Of a stretch of 49,722 bases of DNA, positions 2 through 47,137 are shown piece after piece. Numbering within the stretch: the stretch's first letter is position 1; the number at the start of each line of letters is the position of its first letter. The stretch is from Bifidobacterium tissieri (GTDB taxonomy: Bacteria; Actinomycetota; Actinomycetes; Actinomycetales; Bifidobacteriaceae), in assembly GCF_002259645.1 (NCBI RefSeq), contig NZ_MWWV01000016.1, positions 1-49,722 on the forward strand. Direction: 5' to 3'. The notes under the pieces were generated by a model, which searched no databases, had not been told where the DNA came from, and worked only from the letters and a program-made list of their open reading frames with translations. The translations under genes and the position numbers were made by a program.

Positions 2-505
2 CACGCCGCGAATCCGAATGAGCTGTGGGTCACCGACATCACCGAGTTCTCGATCCCCGCGGGCAAGGTGTACCTGTCGCCGGTGATCGACTGCTACGAC
101 GGCATGCCGGTCGCGTGGACGATCGGCACCAGCCCCAACGCCGCGCTGGCCAATGGGATGCTCGAGGACGCGTGCGCCACGCTCAAACCCGGTCAGACGC
201 CCGTCATCCACTCCGACCGGGGATGCCACTACCGGTGGCCCGAATGGATTCGCATCTGCACGGATCATGGATTGACGAGGTCGATGAGCGCGAGGGGCTG
301 CAGCCCGGACAACGCCGCCGCCGAGGGGTTCTTCGGCCGGCTCAAGCAGGAGTTCTTCCACAAGAGGAGCTTCCAGGGCGTCACGATCGACGAGTTCATT
401 GCGATGCTGGACGAGTACATGGTCTGGTACCGGGACAAGCGCATCAAACTCGAATACGGGATGAGCATCATGGACAAGCGCATCCAGCTCGGGCTCGTCG
501 CCTGA
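2..505 (+). CDS. IS3-family transposase (OrfB, integrase core), 5' end outside window
   Basis: The frame is open from base 2 to the stop at 503-505, so the start lies upstream of the window and only the last 167 residues are seen. All three DDE positions of the integrase core (rve) are visible: D in WVTDITEF, D in HSDRGCHY, and E in NAAAEGFFGRLK. The C-terminal stretch MVWYRDKRIKLEYGMS resembles the usual IS3 OrfB tail. It would act on the ends of its own element to cut and join DNA. The downstream terminal inverted repeat could not be recognised without its partner, so the edge of the element in the 506-600 region is not fixed. The catalytic residues are intact, so this copy may be active. 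I cannot say which gene, if any, it interrupted. Confidence 0.9.
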   Translation, partial: HAANPNELWVTDITEFSIPAGKVYLSPVIDCYDGMPVAWTIGTSPNAALANGMLEDACATLKPGQTPVIHSDRGCHYRWPEWIRICTDHGLTRSMSARGCSPDNAAAEGFFGRLKQEFFHKRSFQGVTIDEFIAMLDEYMVWYRDKRIKLEYGMSIMDKRIQLGLVA

Positions 506-687
506 ACACATGTGATATCGTTCTGAACGACCATTCAGACAACGAAGTCCAACAAAACGTCACCACCCCCTAATTGTGAAAATGTGCGGTTGCGTTCGGT
601 TGTGTGCGATGCTCATGGTGGGTCTCGGGTACCATAAGTGCTCGGTTGCGGACGTGCGGTTCGGAACGGCAGAGGAAGGTGGGGCAG

Positions 688-1308
688 ATGGCAGGAGCAA
701 AGGGAACCCAGCGCATGAGCGCCGAGGACAGGCTCGAACAGATCCTTGACGTGGCTGTGCGCCTCATCGGCGAAAAAGGCTACAACGGCTTCTCACTGCA
801 GGATGTGGCCAGTGAAATAGGCGTCTCGCAGACCGCGGTGATCCATCGAATCCTCAACAAGCAGAACCTGCTCATGCTGGTGCTGCAGCGCTACTACGAC
901 CACACCGGGGCGGCGAACCAGTATCTGGCGCAGTTCAAACCCGGCGGGCCTCGTGAAGGCGATCGTCCGCGCATTCCCGAAATGATGCGGGTCACGGTCG
1001 AACAGAACTCGAAACAGCCGGAACTGGTGCGTCTGTTCGAAATGCTCAACACGGAATCCATGTATCCCGGTCATCCCGCACATGACTACTTTGTTCACCG
1101 CACGCAAGACATCTCCGACGGCTACTACAGCACCGACTGGCTGGTGCCCGACGGTGTGGACGGCCATCTGGTCTACATGCTGGCATACGCGGCCATGTAT
1201 GGCCTGGAAGGTCGCTGGCTTGCCAATCCGGAGATCGATTATCCCGCGGAATGGCAGCGCTACGCCGACTACCTGTTCCCTTCCCCCGTCTGGGACGGCT
1301 ACCGCTGA
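688..1308 (+). CDS. TetR/AcrR-family transcriptional regulator
   Basis: This is a 206-residue protein with an N-terminal TetR helix-turn-helix at about residues 12-58 (ILDVAVRLIGEKGYNGFSLQ, then a recognition helix in VSQTAVIHRI). The C-terminal ligand and dimer domain is not conserved enough to name a ligand. I chose ATG 688 because AGGAAGG lies about 10 bases upstream. An in-frame ATG at 604 has no ribosome-binding site and would add a low-complexity leader. An internal ATG at 715 is a weaker alternative. The gene lies just upstream of, and in the same direction as, the alpha-L-rhamnosidase, so it probably controls the glycoside-use genes and perhaps itself. The 272-base gap to the rhamnosidase holds a dyad at 1542-1559 that could be its operator (inference). 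Confidence 0.88.
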   Translation: MAGAKGTQRMSAEDRLEQILDVAVRLIGEKGYNGFSLQDVASEIGVSQTAVIHRILNKQNLLMLVLQRYYDHTGAANQYLAQFKPGGPREGDRPRIPEMMRVTVEQNSKQPELVRLFEMLNTESMYPGHPAHDYFVHRTQDISDGYYSTDWLVPDGVDGHLVYMLAYAAMYGLEGRWLANPEIDYPAEWQRYADYLFPSPVWDGYR

Positions 1309-1541
1309 TCCGTTGATGGTCCGGCGTGTCGTCGATTCGGTGACAGTTATAGTGGGTCTCAACTTCATTGCTCCCCCATAATCCGCTGATCCGCGACCAG
1401 TTGTGCCGGGATACGTCATGTCGACGTTGGTTGTCGTCATCGTCATGTTCTGCTGACTGTGATCGTGCGGATAAACGGATAGACGTATACGCAATACCGA
1501 CGTGTGTGATTGCGAGTCGGACGACCCGATCATGCACGGAT

Positions 1542-1559
1542 CACGACGATTCCGTCGTG
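1542..1559. promoter_or_regulatory. Perfect dyad CACGACG-N4-CGTCGTG before rhamnosidase gene
   Basis: A 7-bp perfect inverted repeat with a 4-base spacer ends seven bases before the AAAGGAG ribosome-binding site of the rhamnosidase gene. GCAC and GTGC flank it and extend the symmetry loosely. It could be a TetR-type operator or a small hairpin that affects translation. The 1309-1541 stretch before it shows nothing else I can name. Confidence 0.4.
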
Positions 1560-1581
1560 GTGCACAAAGGAGTGATGAGAC

Positions 1582-4257
1582 ATGACGAACGAATCCGAAT
1601 CCTTGATATCCCCGGCCGGACAGGCGATTTCCCAACTGCGCGTCGAACATTTCCATGGCGATACGATCGGTCTGCCGACCGGTGCTCCACGTCTGTCATG
1701 GGACTACGAGACCGTGCCGCCGGCCGACTCGGAAATCGTGTTTCACGTGGAACGCCGTACGTTGGGCGCGGTCGAACCTGTCGTACAGGAGACGCGCGTT
1801 CCCGCTGATGACAACGTCCTGTGCGCATGGCCGTTTCCCGCGCTCGCGTCCTTTGAATCCGCGGTCGCCACCGTGCGACTCGTAAGCCGATCCGGTGAAC
1901 CGCTCTCCCCCGTATCCGAGCCGCTGCGATTCGAAACCGCGCTACTCGAGAACTTCGATCATTTCGCCGACTTTGTAGGACCGTCCTGGGCGGAGCCGGA
2001 AACCGATCACCGTCATCTGCCACTCGTTCGTGCGGAAATCACTTTGCGTGACAAGCCCGTTGCCGCCCGACTCACACTCACCGCACTCGGCATGGTCGAA
2101 GCGGAAATCAACGGCGTCCGCATCGCCGACGATGCACTGCTACCAGGCTGGACCGTCTACTCCGATCGTCTGGACTGCTGGACCTTCGACATCACCGACC
2201 GACTCGTCGCCGGCGCGAACGCACTCGGCTTCTGGCTGGGCGACGGCTGGTGGCGTGGCCGTCTCGGATTCGACGGCGGATGGGTCAACTTCTACGGTGA
2301 CAAGATCGGCGTGGCCGCGCAGATCGACCTCGTCTACCCCGACGGCGGCACCGAACGCATCCTCTCCAACTCATGGGATCGCGCATGGAAGGTCACGCCC
2401 GGCCCGATCGTCTGCTCAGACCTCTACGAAGGCGAACGGTACGACGCCCGACTCGAACAACCCGGCTGGTCCATGCCCGGCTTCGACGATTCCTCATGGA
2501 AGCACGTCGCCGAAGTCCACTACGACACCGCCAAACTCGTCAACGCCGAACTGCCGCCTGTGTCGCCCATCGAACGCGACGAACCCGTATCGATCACCAA
2601 ACGGGACGACGGCAGCTGGCTGATCGACTTCGGACAGAACTGCTCGCAGCGCATGCGCGTTCACATGCGTGGACTCGACTCCGGCGACGTCGTCACCATG
2701 CGCCACGTGGAGGTTCTCAACCCCGACGGATCGCTCGCCACCCGCACCCTGCGTCGCGGACAGCAGTGTGACGTCTACACATCCAACGGCACCGACGCCT
2801 GGTGGGAGCCGCGCTTCGCCATGCACGGATTCCGCTACGCCAGCATCGAAGGATACAAAGGCGAACTCACCGCCGACGACATCGACTGCCGCGTCTACCA
2901 CACGGACATGGAACGCGCCGGATGGTTCGAATGCTCCGACCCGATGATCAACCGACTGCACGAAAACGCCGTATGGTCCATGCGATCCAACTTCGTCTCC
3001 ATTCCCATGGACTGCCCGCAGCGCGACGAACGCATGGGCTGGACCGGTGACATCTCCCTGTTCGCGCCCACCGCAACCTACCTGTACGACACGCAAAGCT
3101 TCCTCGCCAACTGGCTCGAAGACGTGCGCGGAGAACAGTTGCGATATGGCACCATACCGTTCTACGTGCCGTTCGTACCGCTCGGCGTATGGGCGCAGAG
3201 CGCGGCCATCGCCATCTGGGGCGACGCCGCGGCCACCGTGCCATGGGCGCTCTACATGGACGGCGGCGACACGGACGCGTTGCGCCGCACCTATCCGCTG
3301 ATGACCGCGTGGATCGACGAGGTCGCCGGATACCTGTCCGACGACGGAGTGTGGGATCGACGACCGGAATTCGCCATCGGTCAGCTCGGAGACTGGCTCG
3401 ACCCGGCCGCCCCGCCGGACAACCCCATGCTCGCCATGACCGAAAAGGAACTCGTCGCCACCGCGTTCTTCGCGCAAAGCTGCCGGATCGCCGCCGACGT
3501 GGCTCGCGTACTGGGTGAACCTGCCGACGCCATTCGATTCGGTGAACTGTACGATCATGTACGCGGCGGATTCATCGGACGATATGTCGGCGAGAACGGC
3601 ATCATGACATCCGACACCCAGTGTGCGTACGCGCTCGCCATTGCGCTCGGCTTGCTTGACGACGATGATACGTTGCGGACGGCGGCCGGCGACCGTCTGG
3701 CGCAGCTGGTGCGCGAATCCGGTGGCAAAGTGGCGACTGGCTTCGCCGGCACGCCGTATGTGTTGCCCGCGCTGAGCCGTACCGGGCATGACGACGAAGC
3801 GTATGCGCTGTTGTTGTCCACCGAATGCCCGAGCTGGCTGTATCAGGTGAAGATGGGTGCCACCACCACATGGGAACGCTGGGATTCGATGATGCCCGAC
3901 GGCACGGTGAACCCCGGAGGCATGACATCGTTCAACCATTACGCGCTCGGTTCGGTGGCGCACTGGCTGCATGCGAGGATTGGCGGACTTGAGCCGGTCG
4001 AGCCGGGCTGGAAGCGGTTCCGTGTGGCCCCCATGCCCGGTGGCGGTATCACCCACGCCTCCACATCCCACATGACGCCATACGGCCTGGCCGCCTGCTC
4101 GTGGAGTGTGAGCGACGGTGATGCCGGTTTGTCTGGCACCGGTCGCGTGATGACCGTGGAAATCGACGTGCCGGTGGGAACCACGGCCTCCGTGGAGATC
4201 GGGTCCGAACCTCGGGATCTCCCCTCCGGCCACCACACTCTCACCTTCCCGTTCTGA
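1582..4257 (+). CDS. alpha-L-rhamnosidase, glycoside hydrolase family 78
   Basis: This 891-residue protein has the full GH78 layout. An N-terminal beta-sandwich region is followed by the rhamnosidase N domain (NGVRIADD, LLPGWTVYSDR, about residues 170-200), the alpha/alpha barrel, and a C-terminal beta domain. The usual catalytic region is present as CPQRDERMGWTGD, placing the likely acid at about E483. The second conserved glutamate is in WERWDSM at about E765. The family removes terminal L-rhamnose from plant glycosides and polysaccharides with inversion. No signal peptide or anchor is seen, so action is probably cytoplasmic. The start at 1582 follows AAAGGAG by a good distance. The upstream TetR gene and downstream GH140-like glycosidase and MFS permease suggest a locus for rhamnosylated plant glycosides (inference). 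Confidence 0.95.
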   Translation: MTNESESLISPAGQAISQLRVEHFHGDTIGLPTGAPRLSWDYETVPPADSEIVFHVERRTLGAVEPVVQETRVPADDNVLCAWPFPALASFESAVATVRLVSRSGEPLSPVSEPLRFETALLENFDHFADFVGPSWAEPETDHRHLPLVRAEITLRDKPVAARLTLTALGMVEAEINGVRIADDALLPGWTVYSDRLDCWTFDITDRLVAGANALGFWLGDGWWRGRLGFDGGWVNFYGDKIGVAAQIDLVYPDGGTERILSNSWDRAWKVTPGPIVCSDLYEGERYDARLEQPGWSMPGFDDSSWKHVAEVHYDTAKLVNAELPPVSPIERDEPVSITKRDDGSWLIDFGQNCSQRMRVHMRGLDSGDVVTMRHVEVLNPDGSLATRTLRRGQQCDVYTSNGTDAWWEPRFAMHGFRYASIEGYKGELTADDIDCRVYHTDMERAGWFECSDPMINRLHENAVWSMRSNFVSIPMDCPQRDERMGWTGDISLFAPTATYLYDTQSFLANWLEDVRGEQLRYGTIPFYVPFVPLGVWAQSAAIAIWGDAAATVPWALYMDGGDTDALRRTYPLMTAWIDEVAGYLSDDGVWDRRPEFAIGQLGDWLDPAAPPDNPMLAMTEKELVATAFFAQSCRIAADVARVLGEPADAIRFGELYDHVRGGFIGRYVGENGIMTSDTQCAYALAIALGLLDDDDTLRTAAGDRLAQLVRESGGKVATGFAGTPYVLPALSRTGHDDEAYALLLSTECPSWLYQVKMGATTTWERWDSMMPDGTVNPGGMTSFNHYALGSVAHWLHARIGGLEPVEPGWKRFRVAPMPGGGITHASTSHMTPYGLAACSWSVSDGDAGLSGTGRVMTVEIDVPVGTTASVEIGSEPRDLPSGHHTLTFPF

Positions 4258-22312: not shown

Positions 22313-24244
22313 GTGATTTTCGGGAAGAAGCATGACAAGAACGGGACCCCTCACGGCGCCGCGATTCCCGCCGGCGTCGATAAGGTCACCAAATTCCACA
22401 CCCACTCCATTCCGCTCGACATGGAAGACATCGAACGGGATCTCGACAAGCCCGTGGTAGAGGCGGGTATCGCCGCGAAAACCAGCGTGATCGTACGCGT
22501 CGGTATGCTCGATCTGGCCGCCGGCACCGGAAGCTACCGTGTACGCCAGATGATGCATCGCATCGCCTACCCGCTTGGCGTGCACGTGCGCGCCGACGTC
22601 AACCTCACCGACATCGAGGCCTCCTGCACCGACGGCAAGAACCGCAACACCGAGGTCGTGGATCTCCCCACCACCGGCGTCAACACCGAACGCATCTGGC
22701 TGCTCGAACACTTCGCCGACTGGTTCAGCGTCAACCTCGGCCATTCCGCCGTCTATCACAGCCGCGGACTCAAAGTCTCCGACACCCTGGTGGAACATCT
22801 CGACGTGCGTGACGCATCGCAGCTGTCCGCCGAAGCCTCCAAGGAGGAACGTCGCGCCGCCAAACATCCCGAAGCCAATTCCCCGGCAAACGCGAACGCG
22901 CAGGACGGCATGGCAGATGCCGATCTGCCCATGCAGCCCACCAGCGCATCCACCGCACAGGAACGCCTCGATGAAATCGCCCGACAGCAGCGTCAGGACA
23001 GCACCGATCCCATCGCCGAACAGATAAACGCTCACGCGCATGACTCGCACAACACCCCTGACGACCGCAACCCGCACGCTTCACACGATCCACAGCATGC
23101 GGAAAACTCCGGGGATAACGATCCCATCTCCCGCGCTGCCGCCACAGGCAGTCTCAAACATGACACCAAGCGCGGCATCAAACCCCCGCGCGAATACGCC
23201 AAACACTTCGAACACCACACCAATCCGATCAACCCCGCGCACCCGGACTTCCACCCCATCACCGTGCGCCAGGCCCACGAACGACTCGACCTTATCGAAC
23301 ATCGCAAGCCGCTCTACAGCCCCGAATTCGCCGGATTCGCATCCGCCATCGCCTGCGCATCCTTCGTATTCCTACTCGGTGGTGGACTCTACGACATGAT
23401 CGCCGCATTCGTCGGCGCCGGCATCGGACACTGGCTCCGTCGCAAACTCTTCGCCAAGCACCTCAACCAGTTCTTCGTCACCTTCGTCGCCGTCTTCGTT
23501 GCCGCGCTCGCCTGCACCGGCACCCTGCGACTCATCGGCTTCTACGATCCCATCGCGCTCGCCCATGACACCGCCTACATCGGTGCCATGCTCTTCGTCA
23601 TCCCCGGATTCCCCCTCATCACCGGCGGCCTCGACATCGCCAAAATCGACTTCCCCTCCGGCATCCAACGACTCACCTACGCGCTCTCCATCATCCTCAT
23701 GGCCACCCTCGCAGGCTGGGCCGTCGCCCGCATCGTCTTCCTCAACCCCCAAGGCTTTGAACCCCAAGGCCTCAGTACTGCCGTCACCGGCGTTCTGCGC
23801 TTCATCTTCGCCTTCATCGGCGTCTGGGGCTTCTCCGTCATGTTCAACTCCCCCCAGCGCATGTGCCTCGTCGCCGCCTCCATCGGTGCCATCACCGACA
23901 CCCTGCGTCTGGAAATCCAGGACCTTCTCAGCGTTCCCCCGGAAGCCGCCACCTTCATCGGTGCCTTCCTCGCCGGTCTCCTCGCCGCCGGCTGGCGTTC
24001 CTCCGTCCGCCACGGCTGGCTTCCCCCACACCTCGGCTACCCCCGTATCTGCCTCACCGTCCCCTCCATCGTCATCATGGTTCCCGGCATGTACATGTAC
24101 CGCGCCATGTTTTACCTCGGCCAGTTCGACACCCAAAACGCCCTCGACTGGGCCTTCCGCGCCTTCATGGTCATCATCTGCCTGCCCGTTGGACTCGCCA
24201 TGGCACGTGTGGTGACTGACCGTTCCTGGCGCTACGACATCTGA
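22313..24244 (+). CDS. ThrE-like threonine/serine exporter family protein
   Basis: The protein is about 643 residues if the GTG at 22313 is the start. A TTG at 22238 or the ATG at 22421 are alternatives, and none has an ideal ribosome-binding site. The DUF1212 part (SVIVRVGMLDLAAGTGSYR, RIAYPLGVHV) comes first. A polar, disordered stretch of about 120 residues rich in His, Asp, Asn and Ala follows. About ten membrane segments come next, opening with FAGFASAIACASFVFLLGGG. Known ThrE proteins export threonine or serine. Here the polar linker is unusually long. It is divergent from ppc. Its stop codon is the first part of a fold-back repeat that begins at 24243. Confidence 0.88.
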   Translation: MIFGKKHDKNGTPHGAAIPAGVDKVTKFHTHSIPLDMEDIERDLDKPVVEAGIAAKTSVIVRVGMLDLAAGTGSYRVRQMMHRIAYPLGVHVRADVNLTDIEASCTDGKNRNTEVVDLPTTGVNTERIWLLEHFADWFSVNLGHSAVYHSRGLKVSDTLVEHLDVRDASQLSAEASKEERRAAKHPEANSPANANAQDGMADADLPMQPTSASTAQERLDEIARQQRQDSTDPIAEQINAHAHDSHNTPDDRNPHASHDPQHAENSGDNDPISRAAATGSLKHDTKRGIKPPREYAKHFEHHTNPINPAHPDFHPITVRQAHERLDLIEHRKPLYSPEFAGFASAIACASFVFLLGGGLYDMIAAFVGAGIGHWLRRKLFAKHLNQFFVTFVAVFVAALACTGTLRLIGFYDPIALAHDTAYIGAMLFVIPGFPLITGGLDIAKIDFPSGIQRLTYALSIILMATLAGWAVARIVFLNPQGFEPQGLSTAVTGVLRFIFAFIGVWGFSVMFNSPQRMCLVAASIGAITDTLRLEIQDLLSVPPEAATFIGAFLAGLLAAGWRSSVRHGWLPPHLGYPRICLTVPSIVIMVPGMYMYRAMFYLGQFDTQNALDWAFRAFMVIICLPVGLAMARVVTDRSWRYDI

Positions 24245-24349
24245 ATTATTCACATGATGGAGCGCCGCCTGCGTTGCTCCTTAGTCGACGTACCTTTGTA
24301 CGTCTTCCTTCGGTGCGCCTTGGTGTCGCACGCATCATGTGAATAATTC
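24243..24349 (+). repeat. Fold-back repeat A1, at thrE stop codon
   Basis: A perfect 16-bp arm pair, GAATTATTCACATGAT (24243-24258) and its complement (24334-24349), starts at the second base of the thrE stop codon. Inside are small stems GGAGC/GCTCC and GTGCG/CGCAC, and the constant core TCGACGTACCTTTGTACG (24285-24302). Confidence 0.88.
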
Positions 24350-24351
24350 GG

Positions 24352-24449
24352 GTCACCGGGTAACGGAGCGCCGCCTGCGTTGCTCCTTAGTCGACGTACC
24401 TTTGTACGTCTTCCTTCGGTGCGCCTTGGTGTCGCACGCATCATGTGAA
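24352..24449 (+). repeat. Fold-back repeat A2 (shares distal arm with A1)
   Basis: The core is at 24391-24408, and the body and right arm are the same as A1. The left arm is different (GTCACCGGGTAACG) and does not pair with the right arm. It resembles the left arm of A3 with transitions. Confidence 0.82.
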
Positions 24450-24456
24450 TAATGCC

Positions 24457-24561
24457 AAATCATCGGATAACGGAGCGTCATCTGCGTTTCAGAAGACTCG
24501 ACGTACCTTTGTACGCCTTCGTCTTCTGTGCCTTGATGTCGCACGCGTTATCCGATGATTT
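24457..24561 (+). repeat. Fold-back repeat A3
   Basis: Perfect 16-bp arms AAATCATCGGATAACG (24457-24472) and its complement (24546-24561) enclose inner arms CAGAAGAC and GTCTTCTG and the core at 24498-24515. A short partial core (CGTACCTTTGTACG) follows at 24572-24585, just after the aldo/keto reductase end. Confidence 0.85.
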
Positions 24562-24606
24562 TTACGGGGTGCGTACCTTTGTACGTCTCTTCGGTGCGGC
24601 TGTGCG

Positions 24607-25620
24607 TTACTTGCCTAGGGCGATTTCGTCGATGCGGCGCAGTTCGTCGTCGCTGAACTCGAGATTCTTTAGCGCACCGATGTTGTCGACGATCTGCTGC
24701 GGCTTCGATGCGCCCACCAGCACGGTCGTCACCGCCGGATGATGCAGCAGCCACGCCACCGACATCTCCGCCAGCGTCTGACCACGATCGGCGGCCAGAT
24801 CATTCAACGCGCGAATCTGCGCCAGACGTTCCGGCGTCAACGCGTTCTCGTGCAGGAACCGGCCATCCGCCTTGATACGGCTGTCGTCCGGCACGCCGTT
24901 CAGATACCGGTTCGTCAGCAGTCCCTGCTGCAGCGGGCTGAACGTGATCACGCCCTTGCCGAGCCGTTCCGCCGCATCCAGCAGTCCGTTATCCGCCGGA
25001 CGACGATCGAAAATATTGAACTTGTTCTGATTGATGATGAACGGCACACGCAGCTCCTGCAGCATCGCCGTCGCCTTCTCCATCGTCGGGCCGTCATAGT
25101 TCGACAGACCCACGTACAGCGCCTTACCGCTGCTCACCGCCTGCGCCAGCGCGCTCATCGTCTCCTCAAGCGGCGTCTCCGTATCCGGACGGTGATGGTA
25201 GAAGATATCCACGTAATCCAAACCCAGACGCTCCAGACTCTGATCCAGACTCGCCAACAGATACTTGCGGCTGCCTCCATCGCCGTACGGCCCCTGCCAC
25301 ATCTCATACCCGGCCTTGGTGCTGATGATCAGCTCGTCACGATGCCCGCGGAAATACTGGCGCAACAGACGGCCGCAGTTCTTCTCGGCCTGCCCCGGTT
25401 CCGGCCCATAGTTGTTCGCAAGATCAAAATGTGTGATGCCATGGTCGAACGCCGTGAACACCAGCTGCTTCATATGCTCATACGGCGTGAGATCACCGAA
25501 ATTATGCCAAAATCCCAGTGACAGTGCCGGCAGCTTCAAACCAGAATTGCCGCAACGGTTATAGACCATGTCATCGTATCGGCTGGGCGCGGGCGTGTAC
25601 ACGGTTGTGGGTTCGAACAT
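24607..25620 (-). CDS. Aldo/keto reductase (YghZ/Kv-beta-like, AKR14-type)
   Basis: This is a 337-residue TIM-barrel oxidoreductase. The catalytic set is visible: Asp and Tyr in FDLANNYGPEPG, Lys in IISTKAGYEMWQGPYGDGG, and His in VDIFYHHRPD. The NADPH-binding tail is TVLVGASKPQQIVDNI. The GPEPGQAEKN and WQGPYGDGGSRK stretches are characteristic of the E. coli YghZ group, which reduces aldehydes such as methylglyoxal. I chose ATG 25620, five bases after AAAGGAG. The ATG one codon earlier is too close, and the 25686 start lacks a site. It is divergent from a MerR regulator, with a shared control region, so it is probably induced by aldehydes or similar stress (inference). Confidence 0.92.
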   Translation of the reverse strand: MFEPTTVYTPAPSRYDDMVYNRCGNSGLKLPALSLGFWHNFGDLTPYEHMKQLVFTAFDHGITHFDLANNYGPEPGQAEKNCGRLLRQYFRGHRDELIISTKAGYEMWQGPYGDGGSRKYLLASLDQSLERLGLDYVDIFYHHRPDTETPLEETMSALAQAVSSGKALYVGLSNYDGPTMEKATAMLQELRVPFIINQNKFNIFDRRPADNGLLDAAERLGKGVITFSPLQQGLLTNRYLNGVPDDSRIKADGRFLHENALTPERLAQIRALNDLAADRGQTLAEMSVAWLLHHPAVTTVLVGASKPQQIVDNIGALKNLEFSDDELRRIDEIALGK

Positions 25621-25685
25621 CATTGCTCCTTTGCTGACATGCAAAAAACCAGGCGATATCGAAATCGGTTGATATCGTGATTCCA

Positions 25686-25715
25686 TCGTTACACTTCAAG
25701 CGCACTTGAACGCAA
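25686..25715 (-). promoter_or_regulatory. MerR-type promoter of aldo/keto reductase
   Basis: On the minus strand TTGCGT (25710-25715) and TAACGA (25686-25691) are separated by 18 bases. The spacer is centred on a perfect dyad, TTCAAG-N4-CTTGAA (25695-25710), which overlaps the -35 by one base. A dyad inside a long spacer is the classic design of MerR-activated promoters, where the regulator twists the DNA. The MerR gene lies 66 bases away and is divergent. Confidence 0.7.
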
Positions 25716-25781
25716 ATCACACCGGATTGCACGATGACGATGATTGCGCGGTGGCGATGATTTCAAGACAGGAGCTGATGT

Positions 25782-26279
25782 ATGGCAACGACTACGCATA
25801 TCGACAACGGCCATGATAACAACGACGTTGCCATTGCCGATCCCGTCGGATACTCCATCCGGCAGGTCGCCGCGATGTTTCACATGCAGCCGTCCACGTT
25901 GCGTTATTACGAGGATGCGGGTCTGCTCACCAACGTGGAACGCGACTCCGCAGGGCAGCGCGTGTACCGGGAATGTCACATCAACCGACTGCGCACAATC
26001 TGCTGCTTCAAGCACGCCGGCATGAGCATCAGCGAGTTGCAGCGGTTTTTCTCCTACGAGTCCGACGAAGTCGGCCATATCGATGAGATCATGGAGCTGC
26101 TGTACGAGCGGCATGAGGCGTTGGACGAACAGCGTCGTGCACTTGAGGAGGCGCATGCGCATTTGCTCTGCAAACTGCATTTCTACGGCGACATCCAGAA
26201 AGCCGCTCGTGAGCGTCGCCCACTCCCCCAATGGTCCGACTATCGCCACGCGGTGTTCACGGAGATTTCCGGTTCATGA
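25782..26279 (+). CDS. MerR-family transcriptional regulator
   Basis: This is a 165-residue protein. The winged helix-turn-helix starts at about residue 22 (GYSIRQVAAMFHMQPSTLRYYEDAGLL), followed by RDSAGQRVYRECHINRL and a long dimerising helix (HIDEIMELLYERHEALDEQR). The C-terminal effector region is short. No paired cysteine metal site is evident, so it is probably of the aldehyde- or stress-sensing kind. AGGAG precedes ATG 25782. It is divergent from the aldo/keto reductase and probably binds the dyad in that promoter. About 20 polar residues precede the HTH. Confidence 0.93.
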   Translation: MATTTHIDNGHDNNDVAIADPVGYSIRQVAAMFHMQPSTLRYYEDAGLLTNVERDSAGQRVYRECHINRLRTICCFKHAGMSISELQRFFSYESDEVGHIDEIMELLYERHEALDEQRRALEEAHAHLLCKLHFYGDIQKAARERRPLPQWSDYRHAVFTEISGS

Positions 26280-26289
26280 CACGACAAAA

Positions 26290-26319
26290 CCCCGCGGAAC
26301 ACCGAGAAGTTCCATGGGG
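26290..26319. terminator. Hairpin after merR gene
   Basis: CCCC-GC-GGAAC pairs with GTTCC-AT-GGGG around an 8-base loop, ten bases after the merR stop, with a C-A mismatch inside. No T-run follows on the plus strand. A run of four T follows on the minus strand. Confidence 0.35.
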
Positions 26320-26436
26320 CTGGGGATTGTCTCGACAGGTGTGTGACTGGTTTTGGCTGCCACCGGTCGTGATGCCGGCGGGAAGGGTCTCCCGCTGAGA
26401 GCCGCGCCGATCAAAGCGGTGACGACATGGAGAAAG

Positions 26437-26640
26437 ACGGTTCCCCGCCTCGGTGCGTATCTGACGCGCGCTTGTGACGAACAAGCACCGGACGCACGCC
26501 CCGATGCGCATATGACGCACAGAGACGTCGAACAAGCACCGGGGACACGCTCCAGTGCTTGTTCGACGCACGCTTGTGCCAAACCCGCATCAAGGGGCAC
26601 GCTTCAGTGCACATTCGACGCACGCATGCGACCAAAACCA
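26437..26640 (-). repeat. Four-unit tandem array, exact 51-bp period (minus orientation)
   Basis: Read on the minus strand, units start at 26640, 26589, 26538 and 26487. Cores begin TGCTTGTTCG or TGCGGGTTTGG, pass GCGTGCGTC, and end GCA after 34 bp. The 17-bp spacers are GC-rich, such as CGGGGCGTGCGTCCGG, and match those of the array at 14149. Across one spacer GTCGAACAAGCAC pairs perfectly with GTGCTTGTTCGAC of the next unit. Confidence 0.85.
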
Positions 26641-26718
26641 GCTACACACTTACCGAGACATTCCGCGGGGCTACCTACCATAACCACGATTTATGAACCA
26701 CAAACCCTGGTTCGCCGT

Positions 26719-26813
26719 TGAGTTTTGGATGATGTGTGTGTCCGCAAGGCGCACCGAAGGAAGGCGTACGAAGGTACGTCGACTGAGGAGTAACGCCGCG
26801 GACACTCCATTTG
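26719..26813 (-). repeat. Fold-back repeat A4 (shares distal arm with A6)
   Basis: The plus-strand left side GAGTTTTGGATGATG, the stem GTGTCCGC / GCGGACAC and the core are the same as A6, with one base change in the core loop. The arm that should pair with the left side is replaced after CAT by unrelated sequence. Confidence 0.82.
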
Positions 26814-26829
26814 CGTGTGGTTGATTGTT

Positions 26830-26910
26830 TGTGTAATGCGTGTGTCTTCAAGGCGCGGAACGCGAAGGCGTACAAAAGTACGTCGAGTGTTCCGTAACGC
26901 CGGTTCATTG
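26830..26910 (-). repeat. Fold-back repeat A5 (diverged)
   Basis: On the minus strand the core is TCGACGTACTTTTGTACG, with inner arms CGGAAC (26856-26861) and GTTCCG (26889-26894). The outer arms are poorly paired. Confidence 0.7.
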
Positions 26911-26912
26911 TC

Positions 26913-27015
26913 GAGTTTTGGATGATGTGTGTGTCCGCAAGGCGCACCGAAGGAAGGCGTACAAAGGTACGTCGACTGAGGAGTAACGCCGCGGACACTC
27001 CATCATCCAAAACTC
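26913..27015 (-). repeat. Fold-back repeat A6, at trpS stop codon
   Basis: Perfect 15-bp outer arms GAGTTTTGGATGATG (26913-26927) and its complement (27001-27015) start at the second base of the trpS stop codon. A second perfect stem, GTGTCCGC (26931-26938) with GCGGACAC (26991-26998), lies inside, then the constant core. Confidence 0.88.
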
Positions 27016-28105
27016 AGTATTTCATGCCCATGGCGGAGCGCACTTCATCCAACGTCTCTTCGGCGATCGCATTGGCGCGCTTGTTGCCGTCGTGGAGGAT
27101 GTCTCGGATGGAATCCATGTCCTTGGCGAGTTCGGCGCGGCGCTCGCGATGCGGGGCCAGGAACTCGTTGACGGAGTCGGTGACGTACTTCTTGAGGGCA
27201 CCGGCACCGGCGGCGCCGATCTCGTCGGCGATCTCCTGTGGGTCACGACCGGTTACCAGACCGGCGGTGGTGAGCAGGGCGGCGACCTGCGGACGGTTGA
27301 TCGGGTCGAATGTGATGGTGCGCTCGGAGTCGGTGGGGCTCTTCTTGATGAGCTTGGCGGTTTCTTCCGCGGTGGCACCCAGCATGATGGAGTTGCCGTA
27401 GGACTTGCTCATCTTGCGGCCGTCGAGGCCCGGGATCTCCGGAGCGTCGGACAGGATGGCGGACGGCTCGGGGAACACGGGGTTCTTCTTGGCGAAACGC
27501 TCGTTGAAGCGGCGGGCGATGGTGCGGGTGATCTCCACGTGCGGCAGGTTGTCCTTGCCGATCGGCACCACGTTGGCTTTGCAGAAGAGGATGTCGCATG
27601 CCTGATGCACGGGGTAGGTGAGCAGCAGGCCGGTCAGTGCGTGGCCGCTGGCTTCCATCTCGGACTTGACGGTGGGGTTGCGGTGCAGTTCGGCCTCGGT
27701 GACGAGGGAGAGGAACGGCAGCATGAGCTGGTTCTCGGCGGGCACTGCGGAATGCGTGAAGATCATGGTCTTGGTCGGGTCGATGCCGGCGGCCATGTAG
27801 TCGAGAACGAGGTTGAGCACGTTGTCTTCGATGTGCTCGGTGGTGTCGCGGTCGGTGATCACCTGATAGTCGGCGATGATGATGTTGGTGTTCACGCCGC
27901 GGTTCTGCATGGCCACGCGCTCCTTGATGGAGCCGAAGTAGTGGCCGAGGTGCAGACGGCCGGTCGGGCGGTCGCCGGTGAGCATGGTGAACTTGCTGGG
28001 ATCGGCCTCAAGTTTGGCGAGCGTGGCGTCGGAGCGTTTCTTCGCTGCGAGGAAGCTCGCGCTCATTTCGTTGCCTGCTGCTGTCAACTGCTGCTCTTCG
28101 GCCAT
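27014..28105 (-). CDS. trpS: Tryptophanyl-tRNA synthetase
   Basis: This is a 363-residue class I aminoacyl-tRNA synthetase. The HIGH signature is HLGH in TGDRPTGRLHLGHYFGS, and the second signature is the exact KMSKS in PGLDGRKMSKSYGNSIML. It charges tRNA-Trp with tryptophan. The start at ATG 28105 gives MAEEQQL. A longer frame to 28180 would add a leader with no family match. No clear ribosome-binding site is seen before 28105, which is odd for an essential gene and may mean a weakly led transcript. The stop is shared with fold-back element A6. The next gene upstream is divergent. Confidence 0.96.
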   Translation of the reverse strand: MAEEQQLTAAGNEMSASFLAAKKRSDATLAKLEADPSKFTMLTGDRPTGRLHLGHYFGSIKERVAMQNRGVNTNIIIADYQVITDRDTTEHIEDNVLNLVLDYMAAGIDPTKTMIFTHSAVPAENQLMLPFLSLVTEAELHRNPTVKSEMEASGHALTGLLLTYPVHQACDILFCKANVVPIGKDNLPHVEITRTIARRFNERFAKKNPVFPEPSAILSDAPEIPGLDGRKMSKSYGNSIMLGATAEETAKLIKKSPTDSERTITFDPINRPQVAALLTTAGLVTGRDPQEIADEIGAAGAGALKKYVTDSVNEFLAPHRERRAELAKDMDSIRDILHDGNKRANAIAEETLDEVRSAMGMKY

Positions 28106-29406: not shown

Positions 29407-31863
29407 ATGACTGAGCAAACCGCACCGAAGTCCCCGGTGACCACCGAGCAGTTCATTGACGAAATCAAGGAGCAGCTGAAGTACAACCAGGGCGTGACTC
29501 TTGAACAGGCTACCGACGCCGACATCTACGTCGCGTCGTCCCTGGCCGTTCGCCGCCACCTCATGGACTCCTGGACCGCTACGCAGAAGGCCATGGTCGA
29601 AGGCAACACCAAGGCCGTCGGCTACCTGTCCGCCGAGTTCCTCATCGGTAAGCAGCTGCGTAACGCGCTGCTCAACCTGGGCATGCTGACCGAGTTCGAT
29701 GAAGCCGTCAAGACTCTGGGCCATGACCCGCAGCTCGTCGTCGACGCCGAGTACGAGCCCGGCCTCGGCAACGGTGGTCTGGGTCGTCTGGCTGCCTGCT
29801 ACGTTGATTCCCTCGCCTCGCTGGGCGTGCCGGCCTTCGGTTACGGCATCCAGTACAAGTACGGTATCTTCAAGCAGGAGTTCGACGCCGAGGGCAAGCA
29901 GGTCGAGCGCCCTGACTACTGGCTCGCCAACGATGAGCCGTGGGGCCACATCGACTACAACCGTTCCCAGAAGGTCTCCTTCGGCGGCGAGGTCGTCGAG
30001 GAGAACGGCAAGAAGGTTTGGAAGCCGGTCTGGTCCGTGCGCGCCGTCCCGGTCGACTACATGGTTCCGGGCTACGCCTCCGGCCGTGTTGACACCCTGC
30101 GTCTGTGGAGTGCCAAGAGCTACGACGAGTTCGACCTCCTCACCTTCAACAAGAGCGAGTACCTCGACGCCGTCAAGCCGCAGGTTGAGGCCGAAAACAT
30201 CTCGAAGATCCTCTACCCGGAGGACTCCACTCCTCAGGGCAAGCGCCTGCGCCTCGAGCAGCAGTACTTCTTCGTCGCCGCATCCCTGCACGACGCCATC
30301 CGCGTGTTCTACCCCGGCCAGGACAAGCCTGATCTGACCACCTTCCCGGACAAGATCACCTTCCAGCTCAACGACACCCACCCGGTGATCGGCATCCCCG
30401 AGCTCATGCGCATCCTGATCGACGAATACGACTACGACTGGGATACCGCCTGGGATATCACCACCAAGACCTTCAACTACACCTGCCACACCCTGCTTCC
30501 GGAAGCCCTCGAAGTCTGGCCCGTCGACCTCATCAACGAGCTGCTGCCTCGCCACATGGAGATCATCAACGAGATCAACGAGCACTTCCTCGCCGAGCTC
30601 AAGGGCCTCACCCGTGACAAGGAGCGCATCAACCGCATGCGCATCGTCACCGAAGGCGAGCACCCGCAGGTGCGTATGGCCTACCTCGCTACCGCCGGCG
30701 GATCCCACGTCAACGGCGTTGCCGAGCTCCACTCCCAGCTCCTCAAGGACGTCACCCTCCGTGACTTCTCCGACCTCTTCCCCACCAAGTTCACCAACGT
30801 CACCAACGGTGTCACCCCCCGTCGCTTCATCCGCCTTGCCAACCCCCGCCTGAGCGCCCTCATCACCGAAGGCCTCGGCACCGACAAGTGGCTCAGCGAC
30901 CTCGACCTGCTCCAGGGCCTCGTTCCTCTGGCCAACGACGACGAATTCGTCAAGAAGTTCGCCGAAGTCAAGCACGCCAACAAGGTCGCCTTCGCCAACT
31001 TCGCCAAGGACCGCTACGGCTTCGAAGCCAACCCGGACACCATGTTCAACACCATGGTCAAGCGCCTCCACGAGTACAAGCGCCAGTCCCTCAAGATCCT
31101 GGCCCTCATCTCCCGCTACGCCGCCATCAAGAACGGTACCGTCAACGTTGATGACGTTCTCCCCCGTACCGTCTTCTTCGGCGCCAAGGCCGCCCCGGGT
31201 TACTACATGGCCAAGCTCACCATCCAGCTCATCAACAACGTCGCCCGTGTCGTCAACAACGACCCCGACGTCAAGGGCAAGCTGGCCGTCCACTTCCCCG
31301 CCAACTACAACGTTCGTCTCGCTCAGCACCTCATCCCCGCCACCGAGCTTGACGAGCAGATCTCCCAGGCCGGTAAGGAAGCCTCCGGCACCGGTAACAT
31401 GAAGTTCGCCCTCAACGGCGCCCTTACCGTCGGAACCCTCGACGGTGCCAACGTCGAGATCCGCGAACGCGTCGGTGCCGACAACTTCTTCCTCTTCGGT
31501 CTCACCGTCGACGAAGTCGAAGCCCTCTACGAGGAAGGCTACGATCCGGCCAAGTACTACGAAGCCGACCCCCGCCTCAAGATGGCCATCGACATGATCT
31601 CCTCCGGTACCTTCTCCGACGGCGACCGCAACACCTACGCGCCGCTCGTTGCCGACTGGCTCACCAAGGACTACTTCATGACCCTCGCCGACTTCAGCGC
31701 CTACGCCGACATCCAGTACCAGATCGAGGACCTCTACCGTCAGCCCATGGAGTGGAACCGCAAGGCCATCCTCAACGTGGCCAACACCGGCTACTTCAGC
31801 TCCGACCGCGCGATTGAGGATTATCTCGAGCGAATCTGGCACACTTCTCCGCTCGCTGACTGA
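29407..31863 (+). CDS. glgP: Glycogen/maltodextrin phosphorylase
   Basis: This is an 818-residue GT35 enzyme of usual length. The PLP-lysine stretch is EASGTGNMKFALNGALTVGT, followed by LDGANVEI. The glucose-site motifs NGGLGRLAACYVDSLA and FQLNDTHPVIGIPELMR are present. It splits alpha-1,4-glucans with phosphate, giving glucose 1-phosphate, which feeds the bifid shunt. Codon use is strongly biased toward a few C-ending codons, more than in its neighbours, which fits high expression. AGAAAGAG lies before ATG 29407. The stop overlaps a fold-back repeat. A long antisense frame on the minus strand is a shadow. Confidence 0.97.
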   Translation: MTEQTAPKSPVTTEQFIDEIKEQLKYNQGVTLEQATDADIYVASSLAVRRHLMDSWTATQKAMVEGNTKAVGYLSAEFLIGKQLRNALLNLGMLTEFDEAVKTLGHDPQLVVDAEYEPGLGNGGLGRLAACYVDSLASLGVPAFGYGIQYKYGIFKQEFDAEGKQVERPDYWLANDEPWGHIDYNRSQKVSFGGEVVEENGKKVWKPVWSVRAVPVDYMVPGYASGRVDTLRLWSAKSYDEFDLLTFNKSEYLDAVKPQVEAENISKILYPEDSTPQGKRLRLEQQYFFVAASLHDAIRVFYPGQDKPDLTTFPDKITFQLNDTHPVIGIPELMRILIDEYDYDWDTAWDITTKTFNYTCHTLLPEALEVWPVDLINELLPRHMEIINEINEHFLAELKGLTRDKERINRMRIVTEGEHPQVRMAYLATAGGSHVNGVAELHSQLLKDVTLRDFSDLFPTKFTNVTNGVTPRRFIRLANPRLSALITEGLGTDKWLSDLDLLQGLVPLANDDEFVKKFAEVKHANKVAFANFAKDRYGFEANPDTMFNTMVKRLHEYKRQSLKILALISRYAAIKNGTVNVDDVLPRTVFFGAKAAPGYYMAKLTIQLINNVARVVNNDPDVKGKLAVHFPANYNVRLAQHLIPATELDEQISQAGKEASGTGNMKFALNGALTVGTLDGANVEIRERVGADNFFLFGLTVDEVEALYEEGYDPAKYYEADPRLKMAIDMISSGTFSDGDRNTYAPLVADWLTKDYFMTLADFSAYADIQYQIEDLYRQPMEWNRKAILNVANTGYFSSDRAIEDYLERIWHTSPLAD

Positions 31864-31948
31864 CGGAGTGTCATCGGTTGCGCAGAAGGTTCGACGTACC
31901 TTTGTACGCCTTCACCTTCTGCGCAGCCGATGCCACACTCGTCAGTCA
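31857..31948 (+). repeat. Fold-back repeat A7, overlapping glgP stop codon
   Basis: The outer arms are TGACTGACG (31857-31865, covering the end of glgP) and CGTCAGTCA (31940-31948). Further paired blocks follow: GAGTGT/ACACTC, CATCGG/CCGATG and TGCGCAGAAGG (31879-31889) with CCTTCTGCGCA (31915-31925). The apex is the core TCGACGTACCTTTGTACG. Confidence 0.88.
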
Positions 31949-31994
31949 ACTCGCTTGCTCGCGACTGCGGAGGGTGATTGAGTACATAAACAAT

Positions 31995-32047
31995 GTGGGT
32001 GGTGGCGCTATCGAAAGCAATGTGCTTCCGGTAGCGCCACCACCCAC
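31995..32047. terminator. Strong hairpin between glgP and small membrane protein gene
   Basis: GTGGGTGGTGGCGCTA (31995-32010) and its complement (32032-32047) form a perfect 16-bp stem, followed on the plus strand by GTTTTGTATG. It lies between convergent genes and probably ends transcripts in at least the plus direction. Confidence 0.65.
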
Positions 32048-32095
32048 GTTTTGTATGTCAGGCGAACCTGAACCCCAACCCTAACGGGAAAACTC

Positions 32096-46954: not shown

Positions 46955-47104
46955 GTCACTTGGGCCGACTACCGTCACGTGGACCGCCCGGCCCATGTGA
47001 CGGCATCTCATAATCGTTGATTTTTCAACGTTTGTATTTCTTCGTCACGTGGACCGCCCAGCCCGCGTGACGCAATGCGGCCCGCGTGACGCGTCACATG
47101 GGCC
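46955..47104. repeat. GTCACRTGGRCC dyad cluster before fhaA operon
   Basis: Seven copies of GTCAC(R/T)TGG(R)CC or its reverse lie within 150 bases. Pairs form hairpins at 46972-47003 and 47042-47073 (70 bases apart, each with CGTCACGTGG on the left and GTGACG on the right). A near-palindrome follows at 47078-47104. A small stem CGTTGA-TTTT-TCAACG lies between them. The region is between the Nudix stop and the fhaA start. No gene is present in 46712-47137. Confidence 0.7.
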
Positions 47105-47137
47105 GAGATCGGTGTATACCCCCTGACGACTTGGGCT

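What the first reader, a model, noticed from the sequence alone, without database searches (positions are those of the whole stretch)
24243..24349. Fold-back repeat family with a constant core and gene-specific arms starting at stop codons
The core TCGACGTACCTTTGTACG occurs in A1-A3 (24.2-24.56 kb), A4 and A6 (26.7-27.0 kb, minus strand; A4 has one loop change) and A7 (31.86 kb), plus one diverged copy (A5) and one partial copy. At thrE, trpS and glgP the flanking arms are perfect or near-perfect inverted repeats, but their sequence is different each time. One arm is the stop codon and the bases right after it. In thrE and trpS the arm begins at the second base of TGA; in glgP it begins a few bases before the stop and runs through it. 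An inserted mobile element would carry the same ends everywhere. Here each copy carries an inverted copy of its own host sequence. This suggests either templated arm synthesis (fold-back copying around the core) or strong selection for a gene-end hairpin capped by a fixed apex.
Basis: partly seen in the sequence, partly recalled or inferred. Interest (0 to 1): 0.8.

Follow-up and report, generated by a model that had tools for sequence, protein, structure and literature searches.

The report
Gene-end hairpins mirroring gene tails
Bifidobacteria carry a scattered DNA hairpin just behind stop codons whose tip and bulges stay nearly constant while its outer arm is a mirror copy of the end of whichever gene it follows, and the evidence favours DNA copying, not ordinary selection, as what keeps the two arms matched.

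Summary
The 18-nt core is the tip of a ~109-nt hairpin with three variable stems joined by near-constant asymmetric loops: 32 model hits in the own genome, hits in 72 of 189 family genomes, no Rfam match. Copies lie sense-strand behind ORFs: 100 of 121 have a stop 0-24 nt upstream, random sites 4.9%. The outer arm is host sequence, 15-18 bp in 81 of 106 copies, counted from the core, not from the stop. In 25 ortholog pairs both arms changed together at 0.177 per position against 0.178 at four-fold sites; a selection-only model gives at most 0.006. Near the core G.U does not exceed A.C (25 and 28). A synonymous codon change is mirrored, and two sister species show one 3' arm updated at four positions, the other not. 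Three dapD genes carry mirrored tails without a core. Best reading: a structured, probably once mobile element whose arms are made and re-matched by fold-back template switching. Loops A and B are conserved in place. What binds them is unknown. The 23-nt tip recurs in Clostridia repeats.

The parts
24243..24349 (+). A1, intact element at the thrE stop codon (24242-24244): 5' arm 24243-24259, inner part 24260-24332, 3' arm 24333-24349
24353..24448 (+). A2, array copy: inner part and 3' arm like A1, 5' arm not matched
24457..24561 (+). A3, intact copy in the same array with its own 16-bp arms (24457-24472 with 24546-24561)
24571..24600 (+). partial cap copy (gcgtacctttgtacgtctcttcggtgcggc)
   Evidence: read directly
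26732..26810 (-). A4, array copy: 3' arm like A6, 5' arm not matched; one loop change in the core
26849..26902 (-). A5, truncated array copy
26913..27015 (-). A6, intact element at the trpS stop codon (27014-27016, minus strand): 5' arm 27001-27015, inner part 26928-27000, 3' arm 26913-26927
31848..31957 (+). A7, element at the glgP stop codon (31861-31863): perfect arm 31857-31865 with 31940-31948

Best explanation
A dispersed, sense-oriented gene-end hairpin element. Its identity lies in near-constant parts: loop A (GGAGYG / CRCACGC), loop B (GCGTT / GCCTT) and the cap TCGACGTAC-CTTT-GTACGCCTTC, held at set spacing by stems whose sequence is free. [Shown: anatomy, position, in-place conservation of loops A and B.] The outer 15-18 bp arm is host sequence, in many copies the last codons and stop codon of the gene; its partner is an inverted copy of it. 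[Shown.] The two sides are kept matched by DNA copying from one arm to the other. [Strongly supported by rates and single cases.] The most likely process is fold-back template switching at the extruded hairpin during replication, which can extend short arms into the flanking gene tail after insertion and rewrite one arm after the other has mutated. [Inferred.] The loops escape homogenisation because they are selected. [Inferred; the ligand is unknown.] The element most likely acts at the 3' end of its gene, as a boundary or stabilising hairpin whose loops are bound by a protein. [Inferred from sense orientation and from retention at the same genes.]
For: Arms are host sequence: NrdD, Gmk and other last codons are mirrored. 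1984 ORF ends: 40 with a perfect inverted repeat of >=14 bp reaching >=5 nt into the ORF, control 1. 25 ortholog pairs, 300 positions: 53 double, 14 one-sided, 5 unpaired in both; double rate 0.177, four-fold 0.178 (194 of 1089); selection-only model at most 0.006, copying model 0.145 at the highest rate tried. Near-core mismatches 25 G.U, 28 A.C, 25 other. Synonymous GCG/GCA at gmk mirrored. ABC-transporter gene: G005 and G006 share the 5' arm, only G005 has the four-base update in the 3' arm. Core-less mirrored tails at dapD in three genomes. Template switching that makes and repairs stems is in print (PMC8794818, passages). Loops A and B: most positions differ in 0-0.06 of 18 ortholog pairs, stem 3 in 0.33-0.36, four-fold 0.21.
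Against: Far-arm pairs show 35 G.U against 17 A.C and the cap stem 9 against 3, which leans to RNA-level selection there. The sharp 15-18 bp arm length is not explained by template switching. At the highest copying rate tried the model gives more one-sided states (0.089) than seen (0.047), and 29 of 135 elements with poor arms were dropped first. Loop C is little below the four-fold rate (0.12-0.19 against 0.21; a few rows are shifted) and the tetraloop is at 0.33. Small RNA controls for G.U were inconclusive. No transcript data exist here.
Confidence: 0.65

Rival explanations
1. Selection for base pairing alone: the hairpin works as RNA (or as single-stranded DNA), and independent compensatory mutations keep the arms paired.
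For: Strong covariation; sense orientation at gene ends; far-arm and cap-stem G.U above A.C (35:17 and 9:3); 27 of 106 elements have TTTT near the arm end, as a terminator might.
Against: Double changes run at the synonymous rate, about 30 times the most that the selection-only model gives (0.177 against 0.006; the model leaves out double mutants that arise before the first is fixed). No near-core G.U excess (25:28). Four-base update in one of two sister species. Core-less mirrored tails.
Confidence: 0.2
2. The inner part inserts into the loop of hairpins that already existed at gene ends, such as terminators, so the arms are older than the element.
For: One site has terminator-like arms AAAAAACCGCCCC..GGGGCGGTTTTTT (L014); core-less palindromes exist at dapD and at trpS of G133.
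Against: An extra copy at an SDR gene, absent in G001, has arms of only 7 bp. Arms share a set length counted from the core. Arms keep changing together after orthologous sites split. Most of the other trpS and gmk ends without the element show no such palindrome over the stop.
Confidence: 0.09
3. A dedicated enzyme, reverse transcriptase or HUH transposase, makes the inverted arm at insertion with a built-in length of 15-18 nt.
For: Sharp arm length independent of stop position. Diversity-generating retroelements use a hairpin beside a stop codon in which stem structure, not stem sequence, matters (PMC3240598, passages).
Against: RVT_1 (PF00078) found in 1 of 13 genomes searched and not in the window's. 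Y1_Tnp (PF01797) not found in the window's genome or in 7 of the 8 other genus genomes; the one that has it, G003, has a single element hit. Other enzyme families were not searched.
Confidence: 0.06

Closest known systems
Quasipalindrome / template-switch mutation (PMC8794818, passages read)
   Same: Copying between hairpin arms can create perfect stems in one event and re-match existing ones
   Different: Described there in RNA genes, not for a dispersed bacterial element; no constant loops and no gene-tail arms. The paper itself calls the evidence for maintenance of short stems circumstantial
REP / BIME elements with RAYT transposases (PMC3733652, passages; PMC2817692, listing only)
   Same: Short palindromic repeats between genes; REP ends can supply stop codons to flanking ORFs
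   Different: Here the stems vary between copies and the outer arm is host sequence; no Y1 transposase in the window's genome
Hairpin/cruciform target of diversity-generating retroelements (PMC3240598, passages)
   Same: Hairpin beside a stop codon; stem structure matters and not its sequence; loop sequence is fixed
   Different: 8-bp stem there; no reverse transcriptase found in the window's genome; no mirrored gene tail described in the passages seen
Coding palindromes of Nematomorpha mitochondria (PMC6649704, abstract and outline)
   Same: Perfect inverted repeats that reach into coding sequence
   Different: Both arms code there; here one arm lies behind the stop and a near-constant core sits between
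Intrinsic terminators and gene-end inverted repeats in general (PMC13155455, passages)
   Same: Hairpins concentrated behind stop codons
   Different: Constant ~73-nt inner part, and the stop codon often inside the arm; T run in only 27 of 106

Membership tests
REP/RAYT elements | Y1 (RAYT-type) transposase in the genome | tested here: not met
   PF01797: no match in G000 nor in 7 of 8 other genus genomes
REP/RAYT elements | stem sequence shared between copies | tested here: not met
   outer-arm identity 0.30-0.38 between copies; stem 3 varies
MITE | same terminal inverted repeats in each copy | tested here: not met
MITE | target-site duplication | tested here: inconclusive
   one near-empty site compared (SDR gene); TGA next to TGA there, too short to judge
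Intrinsic terminator | hairpin followed by a T run | tested here: not met
   TTTT in the last 8 nt of the 3' arm or the next 8 nt in 27 of 106; a minority may terminate
Diversity-generating retroelement target | reverse transcriptase in the genome | tested here: not met
   PF00078: 0 in G000, 1 of 13 genomes searched
Known structured RNA family | match to an Rfam model at the element | tested here: not met
   none at gathering score over the window; with E up to 1 over 24200-27050 one chance-level hit that overlaps no element
Products of template switching | paired multi-base changes without intermediates | tested here: met
   (rates); four-base case
Integron attC | R and L boxes and an integron integrase | not tested
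   considered from recall only

The most novel reading that the evidence does not exclude
A new class of dispersed bacterial repeat that builds its own ends from host sequence: a near-constant looped core lands behind a stop codon, and a fold-back process with a 15-18 nt ruler writes an inverted copy of the gene's tail on the far side and keeps rewriting it, so that gene tail and 3' flank evolve as one unit. The 23-nt cap is a protein-binding module shared with Clostridia gene-end repeats.
Probability: 0.25. Interest if true: 0.93.

Novelty: new variant of a known kind. Interest (0 to 1): 0.8.

Why it matters
How long stems stay perfectly paired while their sequence drifts is an open question. 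Here are dozens of natural replicates, many with one arm pinned by a protein-coding tail, so the direction, tract length and rate of arm copying can be read directly. It also means that the 3' flank of many bifidobacterial genes mirrors the gene's own tail, and that stem covariation in such a family is not by itself proof of selected RNA structure.

Tried and rejected
Rfam gave no match at the elements and, in 12 Clostridia, Nitrospirota and Bifidobacterium loci, none at the cores except the RNase P RNA of L154. Viral contigs by exact pattern, phages and plasmids by blastn of the 78-nt inner part: no match. Reverse transcriptase and Y1 transposase: mostly absent.

Flawed or weak steps: a first run over glgP and trpS ends ignored locus orientation and was redone. 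The control was flawed, because downstream stretches swapped between genes with the same TGA keep arms that start at the stop; therefore demanded at least 5 nt inside the ORF. Some rows show one element twice (two frames, or overlapping loci). The search for the second hairpin family was narrow (7 hits). G.U controls were too small: 6 tRNA acceptor stems with 2 G.U and 2 A.C, 28 terminator-like hairpins with 7 G.U and 3 A.C. (44 ortholog pairs that reuse elements: 121 double, 38 one-sided) was replaced by the 25 independent pairs. In one search (18 pairs) a few rows are shifted in the cap, so only loops A and B are relied on. The hits were chosen by a model that contains the arm pairs, which favours paired arms; 29 of 135 with poor arms were still found. 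G004-G008 are matched to named species only by equal contig lengths.

Full report
WHAT IS THERE. The core TCGACGTACCTTTGTACG occurs seven times in the window with up to three mismatches (0 in 100 shuffles) and 21 times with up to two in the window's genome (reversed control 1). Lined up, the 21 copies show one plan of about 109 nt: outer arm, loop A (GGAGYG / CRCACGC), a stem of about 8 bp (stem 2), loop B (TGCGTT / GCCTT), a stem of about 9 bp (stem 3), cap TCGACGTAC-CTTT-GTACGCCTTC. Outer arm, much of stem 2, and stem 3 differ from copy to copy but pair. On 14 of the 21, chosen for intact arms, 90.8% of 586 cells pair, 29 of 42 pairs change on both sides, and the covariation score is 0.622 against 0.10-0.15 with one side slid. 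A covariance model finds 32 hits in the window's genome at E up to 0.01, two of them the opposite strand of another hit, and hits in 72 of 189 genomes of the family, 4 of 16 genera.

WHERE IT SITS. Elements were collected from the window's genome (22 hits) and from stretches of six relatives chosen around core matches (116 hits); 3 of the 138 could not be placed on the arm columns, leaving 135. Of 121 that are first in their array, 100 have a same-strand ORF stop 0-24 nt upstream of the arm foot, 16 have one at that distance on the other side, and random positions in the same loci give 4.9%. The commonest single distance is one nt (22 of the 109 with a stop found), that is, the stop codon directly in front of YGGAG. 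The arm is 15-18 bp in 81 of 106 elements with good arms, whether the stop lies 2 or 20 nt away, so its length is counted from the core. In these 106 the stop codon lies fully in the arm in 55, partly in 18, outside in 20, and was not found in 13.

THE ARMS ARE HOST SEQUENCE. Outer-arm identity between non-orthologous copies is 0.30-0.38 in each class of inner identity, 0.9 and above included (31 pairs there). Where the stop touches the core, the 5' arm is the gene's last codons: NrdD GTCCTGCACCCTCTGACG and Gmk CCAAATCAACGCGTGATG are mirrored exactly (gene names from the translations, by recall). Among 1984 distinct ORF ends, 40 have a perfect inverted repeat of at least 14 bp reaching at least 5 nt into the ORF, against 1 when the downstream part comes from another ORF; at 11 bp the counts are 45 and 4. 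Of the 45, 33 have a spacer of 66-80 nt (the element), 8 have other spacers and 4 rows (three dapD genes, one listed twice) have a spacer of 2-3 nt and no core. The loci held were mostly fetched for elements, so these counts are no genome-wide rate.

COPYING OR SELECTION. First, in 113 distinct hits from the six relatives the eleven outer pairs nearest the core show 1050 Watson-Crick, 25 G.U, 28 A.C and 25 other. Selection on an RNA stem should leave G.U well above A.C (general knowledge); decay of a perfect copy should not. Against this, the seven far pairs show 35 G.U and 17 A.C, and the cap stem 9 and 3; all inner pairs together show 47 and 68. Second, in 25 independent ortholog pairs with the same stop distance, 300 arm positions hold 228 unchanged, 53 double Watson-Crick changes, 14 one-sided states and 5 unpaired in both; four-fold sites of the same genes differ at 194 of 1089 (0.178), double changes run at 0.177. 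A 16-state model with selection alone gives at most 0.006 for the strengths tried; a copying model gives 0.145 at the highest rate tried, with more one-sided states (0.089) than seen (0.047). Elements with fewer than 8 of 10 paired near positions (29 of 135) were dropped first, which lowers the one-sided count. Third, single cases. At gmk the last codon is GCG in the window's genome and GCA in G001 and G008, and the 3' arm follows. At an ABC-transporter-like gene G005 and G006 (97.0% identical over the last 300 coding nt) share a 5' arm that differs from that of G001 at four positions; the 3' arm carries all four in G005 and none in G006, where it fits the G001 arm at 17 of 18 and its own at 13 of 18; the G005 arm fits its own at 15 of 18. 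At nrdG of the window's genome, of five bases where the coding tail differs from G001, the 3' arm follows the three far ones and keeps the G001 form at the two near ones. Among 26 mismatches that orthologs can polarise, 20 have the change in the 3' arm, 5 in the 5' arm, 1 in both.

LOOPS. In 18 ortholog pairs most loop A and B positions differ in 0-0.06, while stem 3 differs in 0.33-0.36 and four-fold sites in 0.21. Exceptions: two loop B positions (0.61 and 0.22) and the last base of loop A (0.28) vary. The two sides of loop C differ in 0.19 and 0.12, the tetraloop in 0.33, partly because a few rows are shifted. So loops A and B are held in place while stems drift; for the cap this count is inconclusive. 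The trpS site is occupied in 8 of 9 genomes of the genus and in 1 of 21 others examined. At thrE six genomes show six different mirrored arms behind the same last codon, one of them with a mismatch.

EMPTY AND PARTIAL SITES. At an SDR gene the window's genome has an extra copy between the stop and the element that G001 also has; its arms are 7 bp. This suggests insertion with short arms that are extended later; it is one case. Array copies such as A2, A4 and A5 lack a matched 5' arm or carry the neighbour's 3' arm.

BEYOND BIFIDOBACTERIA. A looser exact pattern was absent from 395 other Actinomycetota genomes and a similar one from viral contigs. In Clostridia the cap forms one limb of a Y-shaped element with shared ends followed by a T run (25 of 46 copies that passed a filter were aligned). 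One such copy lies between the converging ORFs 8-1015 (+) and 1318-2493 (-) of L152, with shorter ORFs overlapping, and one core lies inside an RNase P RNA match (L154). Only the cap is shared; gene-specific arms were seen in bifidobacteria.

MECHANISM AND NOVELTY. Template switching that creates and re-matches stems has been proposed for RNA genes (PMC8794818, passages). Fold-back switching at the extruded hairpin could extend arms into the gene tail, rewrite either arm and make core-less mirrored tails. It does not explain the 15-18 bp limit and needs selection to spare the loops. A dedicated enzyme is not supported by the two families searched. I found no description of these elements: the core string is in no held paper; listings of searches for REP, palindromic or hairpin repeats with Bifidobacterium showed nothing on them (capped lists); PMC3733652 and PMC13155455 do not name Bifidobacterium in their main text. 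Most subscription papers are not in that library.

Noticed in passing
L380, L381, L370, L371, L375, L384 (dapD ends), L200, L203, L204, L209 (glgP ends): A second hairpin family (GCGGCC..CTCCCCTCGCCTAC, short palindrome with core AGTCCACYGGACT..ACGGCTC) lies behind stop codons with inverted and direct copies of the gene's tail around it, at dapD and glgP of several species.
   Followed up: partly
L372, L380, L397 (dapD ends); L254 (trpS end of G133): Perfect inverted repeats over the stop codon without the core: arms of 17-21 bp with 2-3 nt spacers at dapD, and a 14-bp arm with a 10-nt spacer at trpS of G133.
   Followed up: partly
window 26291-26669: Very long imperfect inverted repeat behind the MerR-like ORF (CCCCGCGGAA..TTCCGCGGGG and CTCGACAGGTGTGTGACTGGTTTTGG with a partner near 26637-26662), read by eye.
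   Followed up: no
window 46961-47110: Array of GC-rich palindromic units (GTCACGTGGRCCGCCC, GCCCGCGTGACG) forming a strong fold, a different repeat family.
   Followed up: no
window 31990-32055: Strong hairpin GTGGGTGGTGGCGCTA..TAGCGCCACCACCCAC with TTTT behind it, a terminator-like structure after the glgP element.
   Followed up: no
L154 3792-4332: In a Clostridia MAG the 23-nt cap sits inside an RNase P RNA match.
   Followed up: partly
G003: The genus genome with a single element hit is the only one of nine with a Y1 transposase match (C6:27090-27452).
   Followed up: no
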